This document shows positions 50,704 to 57,275 of a stretch of DNA of 64,000 bases, one piece after another. This DNA comes from Blautia luti (GTDB lineage Bacteria; Bacillota; Clostridia; Lachnospirales; Lachnospiraceae): NCBI RefSeq assembly GCF_033096465.1, contig NZ_AP028156.1, positions 3,428,501 to 3,492,500 of the forward strand, read 5' to 3'. Position 1 is the stretch's first letter. Every line of letters starts with the position of its first letter. The translations under genes and the position numbers were made by a program. The notes beneath the pieces were generated by a model. The model searched no databases, was not told where the DNA came from, and saw only the letters and a program-made list of their open reading frames with translations.

Positions 50704-51870
50704 ATGTTCAAATGTCAGCCCGGATATACACTTCGAAAAATCAAAGGTATCAGTTATCTCTTACCTTATGGTCAGCAGATTGCCGATCTGAAAAAAGGCT
50801 TTGTGCTGAATGAGACCAGTACTTTCCTGTGGAATGTACTTCAGCATCATGAAGGTGCCGAACCGCATCAACTGGCAGAAATACTTGCCAGGACTTATCA
50901 TCTGGATGAGGCTTATCTTCCTGAACTTCTGAAAGATGTGACAGATTTTCTTACACAGCTTACAGCCATGGGAATGATCACAGAAGATCTCCACCTGATT
51001 TCATCAATCCCTTCTGTCTCTATGATAATCGCAGGAATCTTCATAAAACTATACGGTTCTGCAGAACTGATTTCCCCAAATTTCAAACCTTTTTATCATG
51101 AATTTTCGGATGATGATACCTCACAGGAAATCGAACTGGTCACTACGCCTCCACCCAGTCGTTGTTACGGACAGGTTCTTCTGCAGAATTCTGAAATGAC
51201 TGTTTTTGAAAATCCCGACCGTTATGTTGTCCTTTTCCCACAGATGCAGAATCTTTACGAAGCTCATATGCTGAAAGATGGTACTTATGTACGGATTTAC
51301 TGCCACCCACAGGTTTCTGAAACAAATATAGAAAATTTATTTCACGCCATACGGCTGTTTTTCCTTTTCACAGCACAAAGAAACAGACTGTTTGCAATCC
51401 ACTCAGCTTCTGTTCTCTATCAGGGAAAAGCATGGCTGTTTTCCGGTCATTCCGGAATGGGAAAATCCACACACACCTCTCTGTGGCATGAGCTTTTTGA
51501 CACACCGTATTTAAACGGAGACCTGAATCTTCTTGGATTAAAGGAGGATCATATCATCGTCTATGGCATCCCCTGGTGCGGAACTTCCGGGATTTTTACT
51601 GCCGAAGCATATGAACTCGGAGGAATTGTCCTCCTTGGGCGCGACCTGCAGACAGATTATCTGGAAGAGTTAAATCCTTCGGAAAAAGTCCTCCGTGTCA
51701 TGCAGCGCATGATCTCCCCTGCATGGACTGAACGCCAGCTTTCAGAAAATCTTTTCTTTGCCGGGGAAATCGCTGACCGCGTGCCGGTACTACATCTTCT
51801 CTGTACAAAGAATGCTTCTGCCGCCTGCGTGATGAAAAATGCCATTGATCAACTGGAGGAGCTGCAATGA
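50704..51870 (+). CDS. PqqD-domain/HPr-kinase-like fusion protein
   Basis: A 388-residue protein. Residues 1-100 are a PqqD-like (RiPP recognition element) domain: GYTLRKIKGISYLLPYGQQIAD, FVLNETSTFLWNVLQ, LPELLKDVTDFLTQLTAMGMI. The C-terminal half is an HPr-kinase-like P-loop domain with LFSGHSGMGKSTHTSLW (P-loop 248-256) preceded by AIHSASVLY and followed by LNGDLNLLG. In lasso-peptide clusters such HprK homologues phosphorylate the precursor. Here it probably recognises the leader of the three small proteins and may modify them (inference). Overlaps the ABC gene by 4 bp. Confidence 0.88.
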   Translation: MFKCQPGYTLRKIKGISYLLPYGQQIADLKKGFVLNETSTFLWNVLQHHEGAEPHQLAEILARTYHLDEAYLPELLKDVTDFLTQLTAMGMITEDLHLISSIPSVSMIIAGIFIKLYGSAELISPNFKPFYHEFSDDDTSQEIELVTTPPPSRCYGQVLLQNSEMTVFENPDRYVVLFPQMQNLYEAHMLKDGTYVRIYCHPQVSETNIENLFHAIRLFFLFTAQRNRLFAIHSASVLYQGKAWLFSGHSGMGKSTHTSLWHELFDTPYLNGDLNLLGLKEDHIIVYGIPWCGTSGIFTAEAYELGGIVLLGRDLQTDYLEELNPSEKVLRVMQRMISPAWTERQLSENLFFAGEIADRVPVLHLLCTKNASAACVMKNAIDQLEELQ

Positions 51871-53636
51871 AAGAAAAAATACTCCTGATCTGGAAACACC
51901 TGAAACAGGGAACCCTGAAAAAAATGTGGAAACAGACATTATGGATCTATCAGTACGGCAGACGTTACTGGAAAGCCATGATCCTGTATACACTGCTTGG
52001 TCTGGTCGGAACAGGTGTCTCTCTGGTTTCCAGTCTGATTTCCAGAGATCTGGTGGATATTATTACCGGACACCAGACCGGGAAACTTGTAAGTACCTTT
52101 GCCGCAATGATCGGCTTCTCTGTCGCAAACATTCTGGTTTCGCAGGCATCCGGATATGCCTCTACTTTCATTAACCTGAAGGTTGACTCCGAAATCAAGA
52201 ACGACATCTTTGCCAAAATGCTGATCACTGACTGGGAATCCCTGACCGATTACCACACCGGAGATCTGGTGACACGCTGGAGTTCCGATGCCTCCAACAT
52301 TTCAAGCGGAATCCTGAACTGGATCCCCAACCTGATCATTTATACTTTTCGTTTTATCAGTGCACTGGCAATCGTGCTTTATTATGACCCTACTTTTGCA
52401 CTTTTTGCACTGCTTGGAATCCCCTTCAGTGCTCTGCTTTCGAAGCCGCTTCTGAAACGAATGCGTGATAACAATCAAAGAAGTGCGGCTATGAATGCAA
52501 AACTTTATGGATTTAATCAGGAGGCTTTCTCCAATATCCAGACGATCAAGGCTTTTGACCTGATTCATTTTTATATTGATAAACTGAAATCTCTTCAGAC
52601 AGATTATATTAACATGAGACTGGATTTCCAGAAAATGTCCATTCTGACCTCTGTTCTCATGTCCATTATCGGATTTGTCGTATCCTACAGCTGCTACGGA
52701 TGGGGAATTTACCGTGTATGGAGCAATGCCATCAGCTACGGAACCATGACCATGTTTCTGTCTCTGTCCGGTACACTTACAAGTTCAGTTAATTCACTGG
52801 TCAGTCTGGTTCCATCTGCGATTTCACTGACTATCTCAGCCGGAAGACTGATGGATATCGTGGAAATGCCTCAGGAAGACTACAGTCAGGATTCTGTTGT
52901 GCGCCGCTTCGAAAAGCAGTATAAAACAGAAGGTATCGGTGTGAACATGCAGGATCTCACCTATACCTATCATAACGGTACTTCTGTTTTCGCCCATGCA
53001 TCTATGGAAGCCTATCCCCATGAAATCGTGGCTCTGGTAGGGCCTTCCGGCGAGGGCAAAACAACCATGCTGCGCCTGATCCTTTCCCTTCTGGCGCCGC
53101 AGACCGGTTCTTCCCATGTATGCGCTGGGGAAAATCATGAACACACCATCGAGATGTCACCTTCTACCAGAAAATTATTCTCCTATGTGCCACAGGGAAA
53201 TACCATGTTCTCAGGAACCATTGCGGAAAATATGCGAAATGTAAAACCAGACGCTACAGATGAAGAGATCATCGAAGCACTCAGACTTGCCTGTGCATGG
53301 GATTTCGTGGAAAAACTGCCAGATGGAATCCAGAGCACGATCAAAGAACGGGGCGGCGGATTCTCAGAAGGTCAGGCACAGCGTCTCTCCATTGCCAGAG
53401 CACTGCTGCGCAAATCTCCAATTCTGCTGCTGGATGAAGCTACTTCTGCGCTGGATGTGGCTACGGAAAGAAAAGTACTGCGAAATATTATGCAGGATAC
53501 CTATCCCAGAACCTGTATTGTGACTACACACAGGCCTACGGTTTTAAATATCTGTACCAGGGTTTATGCGATACGGGATAAGAAATGTGAGGTACTGAAT
53601 GAAGCTGAGATAACAGCAATGGCTAAAGAATTTTAA
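51867..53636 (+). CDS. ABC exporter, fused permease-ATPase, no peptidase domain
   Basis: A 589-residue half-transporter of the peptide/lipid exporter type. Residues ~1-330 form the six-helix domain; the ATPase has Walker A GPSGEGKTT (about 392-400), signature FSEGQAQRL (about 498) and Walker B ILLLDEATSAL (about 517). It lacks the N-terminal C39 peptidase of bacteriocin exporters, so leader removal needs a separate protease; the Ser/His peptidase at 55246 is a candidate. The presumed cargo is the neighbouring leader-bearing proteins. Confidence 0.92.
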   Translation: MKEKILLIWKHLKQGTLKKMWKQTLWIYQYGRRYWKAMILYTLLGLVGTGVSLVSSLISRDLVDIITGHQTGKLVSTFAAMIGFSVANILVSQASGYASTFINLKVDSEIKNDIFAKMLITDWESLTDYHTGDLVTRWSSDASNISSGILNWIPNLIIYTFRFISALAIVLYYDPTFALFALLGIPFSALLSKPLLKRMRDNNQRSAAMNAKLYGFNQEAFSNIQTIKAFDLIHFYIDKLKSLQTDYINMRLDFQKMSILTSVLMSIIGFVVSYSCYGWGIYRVWSNAISYGTMTMFLSLSGTLTSSVNSLVSLVPSAISLTISAGRLMDIVEMPQEDYSQDSVVRRFEKQYKTEGIGVNMQDLTYTYHNGTSVFAHASMEAYPHEIVALVGPSGEGKTTMLRLILSLLAPQTGSSHVCAGENHEHTIEMSPSTRKLFSYVPQGNTMFSGTIAENMRNVKPDATDEEIIEALRLACAWDFVEKLPDGIQSTIKERGGGFSEGQAQRLSIARALLRKSPILLLDEATSALDVATERKVLRNIMQDTYPRTCIVTTHRPTVLNICTRVYAIRDKKCEVLNEAEITAMAKEF

Positions 53637-53674
53637 TTTAAAGATCCGGATGATCTGTTATCTATATGTATAAA

Positions 53675-53711
53675 AATCCCCTCAGAATGTGAATTGAATT
53701 CTGAGGGGATT
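53675..53711. terminator. Bidirectional terminator between convergent operons
   Basis: AATCCCCTCAGAAT (53675-53688) pairs with ATTCTGAGGGGATT (53698-53711), flanked by A and T tracts. It separates the exporter gene from the three small-protein genes. Confidence 0.85.
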
Positions 53712-53717
53712 CTCTCA

Positions 53718-54098
53718 TTAGTCTGAAATACTTACACCGGTAATTGACAGACCTGCGTCAGATGTTACGACCAGATCGCCGAAACCGATATTATCAGTTG
53801 GATTCTGATGATAACTCAGTCTGATTGTCAGTGTCGGAGTTCCATCTCCTGAACTCAGTCCTGCTCCACCGGATACGTATGTAACGTTCTGGTTGAAGGA
53901 AATTGTTAATACCTGTGATTCTTTGGTATGGTCTGCATTATGATGACCATTTACCTGAATTCTGTAATCTCCTCTGCCTGTCTGTGGTGTCTGCTGGATG
54001 GATGCACTTGCTTCATAACATCCAGCTCCACTTGCAGCGTATACGCCTTCTGCTAATCCATTGTCTATGGAAACTACTGGTTTAGAATACTGTTTCAT
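53718..54098 (-). CDS. Leader-bearing small protein C
   Basis: A 126-residue protein. Residues 1-25 are the shared leader (YSKPVVSIDNGLAEGVYAAS then GA), which has no hydrophobic core and is not a Sec signal. The rest is Gly/Ser/Thr-rich and beta-strand-like (VLTISFNQNVTYVSG, TPTLTIRLSYHQNP) ending SITGVSISD. One Cys follows the leader directly. Third gene of a three-gene set under the promoter at 54989. GGGGGCAG is the ribosome binding site. Role unknown; exported structural, adhesive or carbohydrate-binding protein is possible. Confidence 0.85.
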   Translation of the reverse strand: MKQYSKPVVSIDNGLAEGVYAASGAGCYEASASIQQTPQTGRGDYRIQVNGHHNADHTKESQVLTISFNQNVTYVSGGAGLSSGDGTPTLTIRLSYHQNPTDNIGFGDLVVTSDAGLSITGVSISD

Positions 54099-54149
54099 AA
54101 TAACTGCCCCCTATATATTTTTAATCCTATTCGAAAGTGCTTTCATTAA

Positions 54150-54518
54150 TTATTGGAAATTATTGGAATATGAGCTACCTGTAATTTGCAGATTTTTAAT
54201 ATCGCCATTTGCCTGTACAGTAATCTCAGCTGATGTCGGTGCACTGTGCCATGTCAACGTTGCTGTTTTACCAGAGCAAATTACTCCTGCGCCACTACCC
54301 CAGCAACTACTAATATCCATATTAAATGTCAATACAACTGTTAACTGTGATAGATTAACATTGCTTAAATCCAGATCAAATTTTGCCTGACCACTTCCAC
54401 CCCAATCAGCAGCAATTGTTTTATTGCCAGTCTTAATTCCACCAGCTCCACTCGCCGCATACACACCTTCCGTCATCCCTGCATCAACAGAAACAACCGG
54501 TTTCTCATACACTTTCAT
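54150..54518 (-). CDS. Leader-bearing small protein B
   Basis: A 122-residue paralogue of the proteins encoded on both sides. Leader YEKPVVSVDAGMTEGVYAAS plus GAGG; the mature part has alternating beta-type stretches (LTVVLTFNMDISSCWG, KTATLTWHSAP) and ends LQITGSSYSNNFQ. Two Cys in the middle (SSCWGSGAGVICSG) could form a disulfide. The core layout (hydrophobic strands, Trp, SGKTATLT) resembles small beta-sandwich carbohydrate-binding modules, as an inference only. 51 bp upstream of gene C. Confidence 0.85.
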   Translation of the reverse strand: MKVYEKPVVSVDAGMTEGVYAASGAGGIKTGNKTIAADWGGSGQAKFDLDLSNVNLSQLTVVLTFNMDISSCWGSGAGVICSGKTATLTWHSAPTSAEITVQANGDIKNLQITGSSYSNNFQ

Positions 54519-54545
54519 GTTTATCCCCTTTCCTTATCTCACTGC

Positions 54546-54929
54546 TTAACTCACAGAATAACTGAATCCAGTCATCTGCAGACTATCAATACTTGTTCCA
54601 TGATTCAGATGAATTCCAATTGTCAGCGGATTACTTGCTGTACTTGCGAATGTCAGTGTAGCAGTCCGACCTGACCAGGACTTCTGTACAGAAGCATCAT
54701 CTGTCTCGATCTCATCTACTGTGTCATTAAAGTTAATAGTCAGCGTGATAGTTCCATCAATATCCGACCAGTCCGCCTGTGCCAGACCCTTGCCTCCATT
54801 GGATTCCCATCTGTCCCATACACCCAAATATGTTACATTCAGAGTTCCCTTAGAAGCACCACTTGCTGCGTAAACACCCTCTGCCATTCCTGCGTCAACA
54901 GTTACTACTGGTTTTTTATATATTCTCAT
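54546..54929 (-). CDS. Leader-bearing small protein A
   Basis: A 127-residue protein, first gene of the three. Leader YKKPVVTVDAGMAEGVYAAS plus GAS; the body has TITLTINFNDTVDEIE, SWSGRTATLTFAS and ends LQMTGFSYSVS. Start chosen at the ATG 54929 after AGAGG rather than the TTG two codons earlier. Aligning the three proteins gives about 15 invariant positions in the first 25, and a weaker shared pattern L-T-x-x-F-N, S-G-x-T-x-T-L-T and TG-x-S-x-S in the body. Confidence 0.85.
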   Translation of the reverse strand: MRIYKKPVVTVDAGMAEGVYAASGASKGTLNVTYLGVWDRWESNGGKGLAQADWSDIDGTITLTINFNDTVDEIETDDASVQKSWSGRTATLTFASTASNPLTIGIHLNHGTSIDSLQMTGFSYSVS

Positions 54930-54988
54930 GTTCAATTATCCTCTTATATCTTCAAAATCTAGCATTTTATTTGTTTCATCTTTTCTTT

Positions 54989-55017
54989 ATCATATCCATC
55001 TGACCCCTGAAAGTCAA
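54989..55017 (-). promoter_or_regulatory. Promoter of the small-protein operon
   Basis: On the minus strand TTGACT (55012-55017), 17-bp spacer, TATGAT (54989-54994): a strong sigma-A promoter about 60 bp upstream of gene A. Confidence 0.8.
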
Positions 55018-55245
55018 GCATTCTTACGGAAAACTTCCCCGTTTTTTCTTTCATTACTGTCATTATCCCATCCTGCCAGCAAACCTCTGTATCCACAGAA
55101 TTCATATTGTTCTTTTACAACAGGAATGCTATAATACGCCTGTCCAGGTATTTACCTGAACTAAAAAACATCTACTTCTATTGTATCTGCAAATCTGCAA
55201 TAATCGCTTTTTTATACATACTATTTATCAGGAAAGAGGATTTCT

Positions 55246-55701
55246 ATGAACCCAACAACTCCGAACTCAGACAAAATCGACCTGGAGCAATTGCTTCGTG
55301 ATGGAAATATTATCCGCATCAGACCACAGGGCTACAGCATGTATCCCCTTTTTATCCCAGGACGGGATGAGGCACTGATCCAGCAGGCTGACAGCACAGA
55401 CTGTCGCAGAAATGATGTTGTCCTCTACAGACGGGATCAGGGAATCCTTGTGCTTCACCGCATCTGCCGGGTAACATCTGACGGCTTCTATATGGTAGGT
55501 GACAATCAATTCGAAGTCGAAGGACCTCTCCGCCCGGATCAGCTCAGAGGAAGACTCATCGCTTTTATCCATAATGGCAAAGAAATCTCTGTAAAAAATC
55601 CTGTTTACCGTTTTCTTTCTTCATTATGGCTGGGAATGCTCCCGCTCCGTCCTTTCTGTTTCAGATTAACAGCTTTTTTCCGCAGGATCCACCAGAAATA
55701 A
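55246..55701 (+). CDS. S24/S26-type peptidase with Ser/His dyad (SipW-like)
   Basis: A 151-residue peptidase domain. Catalytic Ser31 lies in GYSMYPLFIPG; the base is His71 in ILVLHRICRV where bacterial signal peptidases carry Lys, as in SipW and ER-type signal peptidases. MVGDNQFEVEGPL is the later conserved box. There is no N-terminal membrane anchor; a hydrophobic-aromatic C-terminus (FLSSLWLGMLPLRPFCF) may attach it to the membrane. A natural candidate to cut leaders at the VYAASGA motif of the neighbouring proteins (inference). Confidence 0.85.
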   Translation: MNPTTPNSDKIDLEQLLRDGNIIRIRPQGYSMYPLFIPGRDEALIQQADSTDCRRNDVVLYRRDQGILVLHRICRVTSDGFYMVGDNQFEVEGPLRPDQLRGRLIAFIHNGKEISVKNPVYRFLSSLWLGMLPLRPFCFRLTAFFRRIHQK

Positions 55702-55710
55702 ACGTCTTTT

Positions 55711-55974
55711 TTACAAAAGAATTCTTTTATCCTGCAGAGTTTTCACCACACTTTTTACATCCTCATAAACCTCAGATGAGTCTATGCCATATTCCTTTCC
55801 TACTATCTGTGCCAGCTCATCAATATTCTCTGCCTCTTCCGCATGCAGATAGATAAACCCCGCTGTTTCACTCAGCGAGATCACTTCATTCACTTCTTCT
55901 GTCCTTTTCCCTGTAGGGAGCACAAGATATTCATCTTCCAGTCTCTTCACAATATATCCTTCTGTTTTTTTCAT
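55711..55974 (-). CDS. Stand-alone PqqD family protein
   Basis: Eighty-seven residues: KRLEDEYLVLPTGKRTEEVNE, ISLSETAGFIYLHAEEAENI, then the helical SEVYEDVKSVVKTLQDKRIL, the winged RRE fold. It may recognise the leader of the three small proteins in addition to the fused PqqD domain at 50704. Convergent with the peptidase gene and divergent from the nucleotidyltransferase-like gene. Confidence 0.88.
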   Translation of the reverse strand: MKKTEGYIVKRLEDEYLVLPTGKRTEEVNEVISLSETAGFIYLHAEEAENIDELAQIVGKEYGIDSSEVYEDVKSVVKTLQDKRILL

Positions 55975-56081
55975 TTCCCTTTTCCTTTATTTCTAAACAT
56001 ATTCATGGTATACTTACTATTATTTCATGGCACTGTCCACACAGTACCAGTAACAAACTTATACACTTTCAGGAGATCATT

Positions 56082-57275
56082 ATGGAACGAATATACGAAA
56101 CCTATCTGAAGATAGTAAAAAATGCATGCACGGATTCCCACAGAACCGAATCTGTAAATCCAGCTGATCTTCCGACTCTGGCAGAGCTGGCCCAGAATCA
56201 TTGTACAGTTCCATATATACTGCCATATCTCAAATCTGTATCCAATTATCCTTTCCTGAAATCCCAGGTAAAGAACATGATGCTGAACTACTATCAGATC
56301 GAACATTTCACCCGGCTTACCGTATCTCTCTTGCGGGATCACAATATTGACTGCTATCTTCTGAAAGGTCTGAGTCTGGCTGCCTGTTACCCAGTCCCGG
56401 AATATCGTAAGCTTGGAGATCTCGATCTATATCTGGCTGATCCTGCTGATCTTTCAAACGCACAGGCAGTTCTGGAAAGCAGCGGGTATGTACCTGAAGA
56501 AGAGCTTAATGATCACCATCTGGTTTATCGTTATACTTTTCCAAAGACAGGCCGCCATTTTTTGCTGGAACTTCATTACCGCGTTGTCGGACAATATCAG
56601 TACAACCGTGCCAATCAACTTGTAGATTCCATCTACTCACCGACTAACCTGAAGAAATCCACTCAGACTATCCACGGATACGCTTATACCGTGTTTCCTC
56701 CTACAGAATATGTCTTTTATATGATCCATCATATGCTGAAACATTATCTGTACAGCGGATTCGGCATCCGGCTTCTCTGTGATTTCACTTTTTATCTGAA
56801 ATGCCACGAAAACGAAATTGATTTCCACCGAATCCACGAATGGTGCAGAGAATCACGGATCAGCCACCTTTACGAAATCATTCTGGAATGCTGTCGAAAA
56901 TATCTGGGACTTCCTGACTCCATAGATGCCAATACACATTATTCCCCAGATGACTGCCAGGATTTCATAACACAGATTCTGAAAGATGGAGATATGGGAA
57001 CAGACATTTCCCAATCACTCATCGGAAGCAGTTCATACCAGAAAATCAACTTCTTCACTTATTTCAAAGAAGGACACGTCCAGATGAAGGTACGCTTCCC
57101 CAGAGCCAGACGCTTCCCGCTCCTGTGGCCCGCCCTCTGGATCATTACTTTCCTCTGTTTTATCCGCAACACCTACACGGTCCGGAATACCACTCTCCGT
57201 CAGACCCTTCATGACTTTAAAAAAAGCAACCAGAAGACAAAACTGGTCAAAATTTTCGAAAACAGTGACTCCTGA
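56082..57275 (+). CDS. Nucleotidyltransferase-like protein (PF14907 type)
   Basis: A 397-residue protein with the minimal nucleotidyltransferase motifs around residues 90-117: CYLLKGLSLAACYP, EYRKLGDLDLYL, then HFLLELHYRV. PF14907 proteins commonly accompany PqqD/HprK genes in lasso-peptide-like clusters and are proposed to transfer nucleotides or sugars to the product. A C-terminal hydrophobic stretch (LLWPALWIITFLCFI) may bind the membrane. The ATG follows AGGAG. Confidence 0.85.
   Translation: MERIYETYLKIVKNACTDSHRTESVNPADLPTLAELAQNHCTVPYILPYLKSVSNYPFLKSQVKNMMLNYYQIEHFTRLTVSLLRDHNIDCYLLKGLSLAACYPVPEYRKLGDLDLYLADPADLSNAQAVLESSGYVPEEELNDHHLVYRYTFPKTGRHFLLELHYRVVGQYQYNRANQLVDSIYSPTNLKKSTQTIHGYAYTVFPPTEYVFYMIHHMLKHYLYSGFGIRLLCDFTFYLKCHENEIDFHRIHEWCRESRISHLYEIILECCRKYLGLPDSIDANTHYSPDDCQDFITQILKDGDMGTDISQSLIGSSSYQKINFFTYFKEGHVQMKVRFPRARRFPLLWPALWIITFLCFIRNTYTVRNTTLRQTLHDFKKSNQKTKLVKIFENSDS

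What the first reader, a model, noticed from the sequence alone, without database searches (positions are those of the whole stretch)
50704..57275. Candidate undescribed system: leader-bearing beta proteins with PqqD-HprK, ABC exporter, Ser/His peptidase and nucleotidyltransferase
Three adjacent paralogues (53718-54929) share a 25-residue non-Sec leader ending EGVYAASGA but have divergent 100-residue bodies. Around them are a PqqD domain fused to an HprK-like kinase, a peptidase-less ABC exporter, a second PqqD, a SipW-like peptidase and a PF14907 protein. The accessory set is that of lasso-peptide or other RiPP loci, yet no cyclase or maturase is present and the precursors are folded-protein size. 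This fits a leader-guided modification and export route for small beta-sandwich proteins.
Basis: partly seen in the sequence, partly recalled or inferred. Interest (0 to 1): 0.9.

Follow-up and report, generated by a model that had tools for sequence, protein, structure and literature searches.

The report
Peptide-type leader on folded proteins
In this gut bacterium a short tag of the kind used to make small modified peptides sits on small folded proteins, beside genes that would recognise, phosphorylate, cut and export them; the machinery is close to a peptide pathway published in 2026, but the folded cargo and the recognition domain fused to the kinase look like a new branch.

Summary
Three genes at 53718-54929 (-) share a leader, MxxYxKPVVxVDxGxxEGVYAASG, on different ~100-residue bodies, beside a PqqD-HprK kinase, a C39-less ABC exporter, a SipW-like peptidase, a second PqqD and PF14907. 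Of 33 loci found through leader proteins, 24 have the exporter, 23 the kinase, 24 the peptidase and 20 PF14907 nearby; all 23 of 397 family genomes with a strong kinase match have a leader gene.

"Undescribed" does not hold. The same gene set and leader logic were published in 2026 as LPP RiPPs (PMC13381572): RRE, HprK-like kinase phosphorylating core Ser3, SpI-like leader peptidase, NTP transferase, MsbA-like exporter, in capsule loci. This locus works like LPP but lacks its leader motif (0 of 41 leaders). It differs in EGVYAASG, an RRE fused to the kinase, and folded cargo: two window bodies are predicted beta-sandwiches nearest CBM2-type modules, other genomes carry an unrelated Cys-rich body, and some leader genes lie away from the machinery.

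Best reading: an LPP-like sister pathway in Lachnospiraceae that phosphorylates an N-terminal Ser of small folded proteins, trims the leader and exports them. The chemistry is inferred.

The parts
50704..51870 (+). K: N-terminal PqqD/RRE domain fused to an HprK-like kinase (388 aa)
   Evidence: PF05402 7.2e-8; PqqD in 11 of 14 members of the K alignment; best solved relatives of the RRE part are lasso RRE TbiB1 5v1u (4.8e-4), 9x90 and the LPP RRE 9x8z; leader-contact residues N33/D70/F74 of LppB kept in the window protein; Walker A conserved
51867..53636 (+). ABC exporter (MsbA-like, ABC_membrane + ABC_tran, no C39 hit), overlaps K by 4 bases
   Evidence: 82 bp from the nearest leader gene
53675..53711 (-). 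14-bp perfect stem (AATCCCCTCAGAAT) with 9-nt loop and T-rich tail on the minus strand, just after the last leader gene: likely terminator
   Evidence: read directly; not reported by the scan, whose loop limit is 8
53718..54098 (-). leader protein type B (126 aa), body a predicted beta-sandwich nearest CBM2-type modules
54027..54098 (-). leader region of type B (24 codons, ending ...EGVYAASG)
54150..54518 (-). leader protein type A (122 aa); leader 54447-54518; not modelled
   Evidence: about 40% identical to type C, leader included
54546..54929 (-). leader protein type C (127 aa, ATG start); leader 54858-54929; body a predicted beta-sandwich
55246..55701 (+). SipW/archaeal-type S26 Ser-His peptidase, proposed leader peptidase (LppS-like)
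   Evidence: TIGR02228 3.5e-7, below cut-off; S31 and H71 invariant in 24 of 24 distinct homologues; tree
55711..55974 (-). second, discrete PqqD/RRE protein (87 aa)
   Evidence: PF05402 1.1e-11; a discrete PqqD-like frame in 10 of 34 leader loci; keeps D70 but not N33/F74 of LppB
56082..57275 (+). PF14907 nucleotidyltransferase (LppN-like)
   Evidence: 1.4e-34; K95 G96 ... G112 D113 D115 conserved in 20 of 20

Best explanation
A leader-guided modification and export pathway, built like the LPP RiPP pathway and probably sister to it, in which the 'core' is a small folded protein. The leader's Y-x-x-P-x-V binds the RRE (PqqD) domain fused to the HprK-like kinase. The kinase then phosphorylates the invariant Ser of EGVYAASG (Ser23 of the precursor). 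If the leader is numbered like a lasso leader (Y-17, P-14, V-12, V/I-2), this is core Ser3, the residue phosphorylated in LPP and in the lasso precursor BsfA. The S26-type Ser-His peptidase removes the leader, most likely at Y20|A21 (by homology) or A21|A22 (by the usual signal-peptidase preference, recalled). The ABC exporter releases the protein. PF14907 may add a sugar to the phosphate, as a nucleotidyltransferase does in pseudomycoidin. The products would be surface or secreted CBM2-like and Cys-rich small proteins with a modified N terminus. Shown here: gene set, leader, co-occurrence, conserved catalytic and leader-contact residues, predicted folds. Inferred: every chemical step, order, export and function.
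For: Leader-only profile: 3 strong hits in the genome, all here. Co-occurrence: 24 exporter, 23 kinase, 24 peptidase, 20 PF14907 of 33 loci found through leader proteins; 23 of 23 genomes with a kinase match at or below 5.8e-92 have a leader gene. The RRE part of K is nearest to lasso and LPP RREs that were solved with their leaders, and leader-contact residues of LppB are mostly kept in 25 K rows: D70 in 23, N33 in 21, F74 in 21. Leader positions in 41 leaders: Ser, Gly and Glu 41, Pro 40, Tyr 39, V/I at -2 41. Peptidase S31/H71 24 of 24. LPP-type loci found with the same peptidase profile in other Bacillota have small precursor-like ORFs with YxxP leaders, e.g. MKQYVKPMIITEEEIQFETLVS. One leader on bodies of unrelated sequence. 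LPP biochemistry: PMC13381572; BsfA: PMC10368454 (passages).
Against: The LPP leader motif Px9Fx[T/A] is absent (0 of 41 leaders, 0 of 240 listed homologues). The distance Tyr to Ser is 19 here and 18 in LPP, so the Ser3 equivalence rests on lasso spacing. In BsfA, Ala at Tyr(-17) or Leu(-12) did not affect phosphorylation, so the leader motif need not steer a kinase. A Tyr/Phe just before the proposed cut is unusual for an S26 peptidase (recalled). The leaders were collected with leader-bearing profiles, so part of their conservation is by construction. Seven of 34 leader loci have no partner in the stretch seen, two of them in a 68%-complete genome (G209) with no kinase hit. Fused kinase proteins also occur without a leader or partners (L105, L106). 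Pfam sees PqqD in 11 of 14 kinases only. The known kinases of this group named in what I read act on peptides; I saw none shown to act on a folded protein.
Confidence: 0.7

Rival explanations
1. Export only: the RRE delivers the leader protein to the exporter and peptidase, and the kinase regulates the process (or acts on another substrate) without modifying the exported protein.
For: Folded cargo does not need a modification to work; the exporter is the closest and most constant neighbour (25 of 34 leader loci, 23 of them within 160 bp).
Against: The kinase Walker A is kept, the RRE is fused to the kinase and not to the exporter or peptidase, and the Ser at the proposed phosphosite is invariant. 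In LPP unphosphorylated precursor is cut poorly (PMC13381572).
Confidence: 0.15
2. True LPP or lasso-type RiPP: the 100-residue body is further processed to a short peptide and only a fragment is the product.
For: Same accessory set as LPP and paeninodin-like clusters; LPP precursors of 35-200 aa are reported.
Against: Bodies are conserved nearly to the last residue across genera (type C in A. hallii, B. luti and C. catus) and are predicted to fold (pLDDT 85-97 over the body of type C); no cyclase or further protease among the family hits of the eight proteins.
Confidence: 0.08
3. Antibacterial effectors: the bodies are bacteriocin-like proteins and the neighbours give modification and export; one of the small genes is immunity.
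For: Several paralogues with different bodies; patchy distribution (24 of 397 family genomes with G159 counted and G096 dropped).
Against: I recognised no immunity gene among the recurrent neighbour families listed (these were not annotated in full); folds are nearest to carbohydrate-binding modules.
Confidence: 0.07

Closest known systems
LPP (linear polyphosphorylated peptide) RiPPs, Popov et al. 2026, PMC13381572
   Same: SpI/SipW-like leader peptidase with RRE, HprK-like kinase, NTP transferase, MsbA-like exporter; YxxP leader; Ser near the start of the core; polysaccharide-gene neighbourhood; one to three precursors with variable C termini
   Different: Leader motif EGVYAASG instead of FETxxS; RRE fused to the kinase (PqqD by Pfam in 11 of 14 kinases), with an extra discrete RRE in 10 of 34 loci; cores are folded ~100-residue domains instead of the 45-residue core studied; Lachnospiraceae. 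The words Lachnospir- and Clostridia do not occur in that paper's main text (its supplements could not be read)
Phosphorylated lasso peptides (paeninodin, BsfA, pseudomycoidin)
   Same: PqqD-type RRE, HprK-like kinase, nucleotidyltransferase, ABC exporter; leader Tyr(-17), Pro(-14), Leu(-12) and Ile/Val(-2) with Ser3 phosphorylation in BsfA (PMC10368454, abstract and passages; PMC8498205, passages)
   Different: No macrolactam cyclase, no B2 peptidase, no short core
CBM2-type cellulose/chitin-binding modules
C39/double-glycine leader proteins exported by PCAT transporters
   Same: Short non-Sec leader and ABC exporter
   Different: No C39 hit; leader without double glycine; separate S26 peptidase

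Membership tests
LPP RiPP (PMC13381572) | SpI/SipW-like Ser peptidase encoded beside an RRE | tested here: met
   catalytic Ser and His invariant 24 of 24; NCBIfam matches are below cut-off
LPP RiPP (PMC13381572) | HprK-like kinase, NTP transferase and MsbA-like exporter in the cluster, no lasso cyclase or B2 | tested here: met
   no family hit for cyclase or B2 among the eight proteins of the locus
LPP RiPP (PMC13381572) | precursor leader with [Y/W]xxPx[L/V/I/F/A] | tested here: met
   Tyr 39, Pro 40, V/I/L/A 41 of 41 leaders; all three window leaders
LPP RiPP (PMC13381572) | leader motif Px9Fx[T/A] (FETxxS) | tested here: not met
   0 of 41 leaders, 0 of 240 listed homologues; so it is not filed as an LPP member
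LPP RiPP (PMC13381572) | discrete RRE, kinase without RRE fusion | tested here: not met
   the window's kinase carries the RRE; a discrete one exists in addition in the window and in 10 of 34 loci
LPP RiPP (PMC13381572) | phosphates on core Ser3 and RRE-dependent leader cleavage | not testable with these tools
   invariant Ser at the lasso-spaced +3 position only
Lasso peptide | macrolactam cyclase and B2 leader peptidase | tested here: not met
   no such family hit in the eight proteins; the rest of the genome was not searched for them
CBM2 carbohydrate-binding module | CBM2 fold | tested here: inconclusive
   best matches are CBM2/chitin-binding modules, but the models rest on 19-23 rows and type C is tied with other domains
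CBM2 carbohydrate-binding module | sequence match to a CBM profile | tested here: not met
   no Pfam family at E up to 1 for the three proteins
CBM2 carbohydrate-binding module | surface aromatic residues that bind the polysaccharide | not tested
   -
C39/double-glycine export | C39 peptidase domain on the exporter | tested here: not met
Sec signal peptide substrate of SipW | hydrophobic N-terminal stretch | tested here: not met
   highest mean Kyte-Doolittle over 10 residues 0.87-1.19 in the three leaders; no signal-peptide predictor was available

The most novel reading that the evidence does not exclude
A general protein-tagging system: the leader marks any of several unrelated folded domains for a phosphate, then a glycosyl-phosphate, on an N-terminal Ser, so that the exported domain can be attached to the cell's own surface polysaccharide made by the neighbouring genes. 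That would be RiPP chemistry used as a protein secretion and surface-anchoring route.
Probability: 0.2. Interest if true: 0.88.

Novelty: new variant of a known kind. Interest (0 to 1): 0.62.

Why it matters
In the papers read here, RRE, kinase and leader peptidase of this kind act on peptides. Here the same logic appears to serve folded 100-residue domains of unrelated sequence types, in gut Lachnospiraceae; 3204 database proteins (90% clusters) match the profile of the window's three proteins at E up to 0.01. If true, RiPP leaders are also a secretion tag for proteins, and the unknown role of LPP-type clusters in capsule loci becomes testable with cargo that has a recognisable fold.

Tried and rejected
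Double-glycine (C39) export: no C39 hit and no GG motif. Sec export: no hydrophobic stretch. Literal lasso cluster: no cyclase or B2 hit. Lipoprotein (ASG|C in L045): the Cys is not at a fixed place in other members. MS2 coat-protein match of the type B profile (E 4e-4 for a tandem coat protein, 0.033 or worse for the others): taken as chance; MS2 is not among the 50 structural matches listed in each. 'GVYAASG' gave seven papers, by title on human disease, kinases or biomaterials; not opened. Viral-contig scan with the PF14907 protein: nothing. The G096 hit was dropped: it starts at profile position 18 in a 556-aa frame, and no leader was found there. L104 was left out of the 33-locus counts because its kinase brought it in. 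L010 and L012 were left out as copies of L073 and L046. LPP-motif matches other than the two precursor-like ORFs of L130 and L133 (in L110, L131, L133, L136, L137) look like chance frames and were not used. Promoter and terminator scans of the locus were near chance (17 promoters against 14.9, 5 terminators against 4.2). The kinase threshold was chosen after seeing the gap (5.8e-92, next 1.3e-62). Peptidase tree: one clade for the leader-associated rows is not rejected (p-AU 0.438) but not shown; in the free tree they need three changes. Sections 9 and 10 of PMC13381572 were not read.
Full report
WHAT IS THERE. The locus lies in a complete 3,741,599-base Lachnospiraceae chromosome. G044, of the window's genus, has a 43,342-base contig, the length of the Blautia luti contig NZ_JAAITI010000028.1, so the window is probably from a Blautia relative (inference). 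On the plus strand are K (50704-51870, PqqD + HprK-like kinase) and, overlapping by four bases, an ABC exporter (51867-53636). On the minus strand are three leader proteins (54929 to 53718), ending in a 14-bp stem with a T-rich tail at 53675-53711. Then come an S26/SipW-like peptidase (55246-55701 +), a discrete PqqD (55711-55974 -) and PF14907 (56082-57275 +). Beyond lie a GH31 protein on the left and, on the right, a DUF4832 protein, a GT2 and a membrane-type protein whose family recurs in 18 of the 36 loci compared (two of the 18 are copies of one B. luti locus) (no Pfam hit, flippase is my reading).

THE LEADER. A leader-only profile finds these three places in the genome at E about 1e-11 to 1e-12, the next at 1.1. 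A profile of the three proteins matches 3204 of 3539 candidate proteins at E up to 0.01; only the best 120 were listed and seen; none of those has a precomputed Pfam domain. The leader regular expression fits 116 of these 120.

CO-OCCURRENCE. Thirty-three loci were found through leader-bearing profiles or a leader DNA pattern, not by neighbours; L104 came in by its kinase and is left out of the counts here. Of the 33, 24 have the exporter (within 1.2 kb), 23 K (within 3 kb), 24 the peptidase (within 4.3 kb) and 20 PF14907 (within 3.5 kb); 26 have at least one of these and 18 have all four. Two of the incomplete ones, L011 and L047, lie on short contigs (5,589 and 5,167 bases). Seven have none in the stretch seen; five of these (L050, L052, L059, L061, L063) are in genomes whose main locus or kinase lies elsewhere, and two are in G209, 68% complete, with no kinase hit. 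Some loci are close kin (L053 and L055), so the counts are not independent events. In 397 family genomes, 24 had a profile match; one, G096, is not a leader protein. The K profile hits 89 of 397 at 1e-20, of which 23 lie at or below 5.8e-92 and the next at 1.3e-62 (cut chosen after seeing the gap). Of these 23, 22 are among the leader genomes and the 23rd (G159) has a leader gene next to K. Against this: L105 and L106 carry a fused kinase with no leader and no partner found. In a class-wide sample, 2 of 391 genomes have K at 1e-50, both in the window's family. In the window's genus, 2 of 64 genomes have the exact DNA pattern of the leader, so the system looks patchy.

THE MACHINERY. The RRE part of K matches TbiB1 (5v1u), 9x90 and LppB (9x8z) best. 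On LppB numbering, residues that hold the leader Tyr and Pro are mostly kept in 25 K rows: D70 23, N33 21, F74 21, Y60 18; V35 and V63 are not; the window's K keeps N33, D70, F74 and Y60, its discrete PqqD of these only D70 and Y60. So the fused RRE is the better candidate for leader binding. The peptidase keeps Ser31 and His71 in 24 of 24 distinct sequences.

RELATION TO LPP. With the peptidase profile, 8 of 398 phylum genomes match at 1e-18, seven outside the window's family. Of the eight stretches fetched from those seven, seven (six genomes) have a discrete RRE and a shorter HprK-like kinase nearby and one (L137) has neither; two (L130, L133) carry 42- and 60-residue ORFs with the published LPP leader motif, and three others (L131, L134, L135) small ORFs with a weak leader match, E 0.03-0.05. 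The leader-associated peptidases and the others form largely separate groups; a single origin of the former is not rejected (p-AU 0.438) and not shown; L135 and L056 are long branches that meet. PMC13381572 (abstract, introduction, four of six results sections, bioinformatics methods and discussion read; passages; supplements not readable) describes the LPP family: RRE LppB, kinase LppK putting phosphates on core Ser3, peptidase LppS needing the RRE, exporter LppD, NTP transferase LppN without effect in the test system, clusters in capsule loci, function unknown. That is the same toolkit. The leader here has the RRE motif but not FETxxS (0 of 41), so I do not file it as an LPP member; I call it a sister variant that works the same way.

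MECHANISM. Numbered like a lasso leader (Y-17, P-14, V-12; PMC10368454 abstract and passages), the invariant V/I falls on -2, where BsfA has Ile, and the invariant Ser on +3, the Ser that BsfK and LppK phosphorylate. LPP spacing is one residue shorter, and in BsfA Ala at Tyr(-17) or Leu(-12) did not affect phosphorylation, so this is a good guess and not a proof. A nucleotidyltransferase adds one or two hexoses to the phosphate of pseudomycoidin in vivo (PMC8498205 passages; that it is of the PF14907 family is my assumption). Capsule-type genes next door give a possible acceptor; this is the speculative part.

LITERATURE. Searches for the leader string, the gene set, LPP and RRE-HprK fusions listed no paper that by title or abstract start is on folded-protein cargo or on this leader; two searches listed 20 of 70 and 15 of 280 papers. 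The library holds open-licence papers only. RRE-Finder's main text has no mention of kinase or HPr (term counts only).

Noticed in passing
L010:10587-10763 (same as L073:9888-10064): Blautia luti carries a 58-residue remnant of a type B gene: leader end joined in frame to the last part of the body, with the middle missing.
   Followed up: no
L071:7492-7875 and L072:9961-10356: Leader-bearing proteins of G209 whose bodies resemble ubiquitin weakly (Pfam ubiquitin E 0.0015 and 1.3e-4, both below cut-off).
   Followed up: partly
L109:6611-7528 and L110:6883-7689: Proteins that look like histidine kinases beside LPP-like gene sets have a YQKP peptide near their N terminus (MKKKYQKPDV, MKYQKPQL), like the RRE-binding motif; a response-regulator-like gene precedes each (read by eye).
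   Followed up: no
L105:9246-10442 and L106:9245-10351: Fused PqqD-HprK proteins standing alone, without leader, exporter or peptidase found in the stretch.
   Followed up: no
L066:7991-8236, L068:7947-8201, L059:9940-10188: Tiny leader proteins (77-82 aa) with a CRYGRKxxxxGxDTCQACSAT-type Cys-rich body; only 7 relatives found for the L066 one in the protein database.
   Followed up: partly
L065:16731-18601: A second, divergent fused kinase (430 aa) on the other side of the leader gene of G425; role unknown.
   Followed up: no
G000:C1:2746216-2746380 (L138:9190-9558): Third PqqD-domain protein of the window's genome, beside a large membrane-type protein, away from any kinase of this type.
   Followed up: partly
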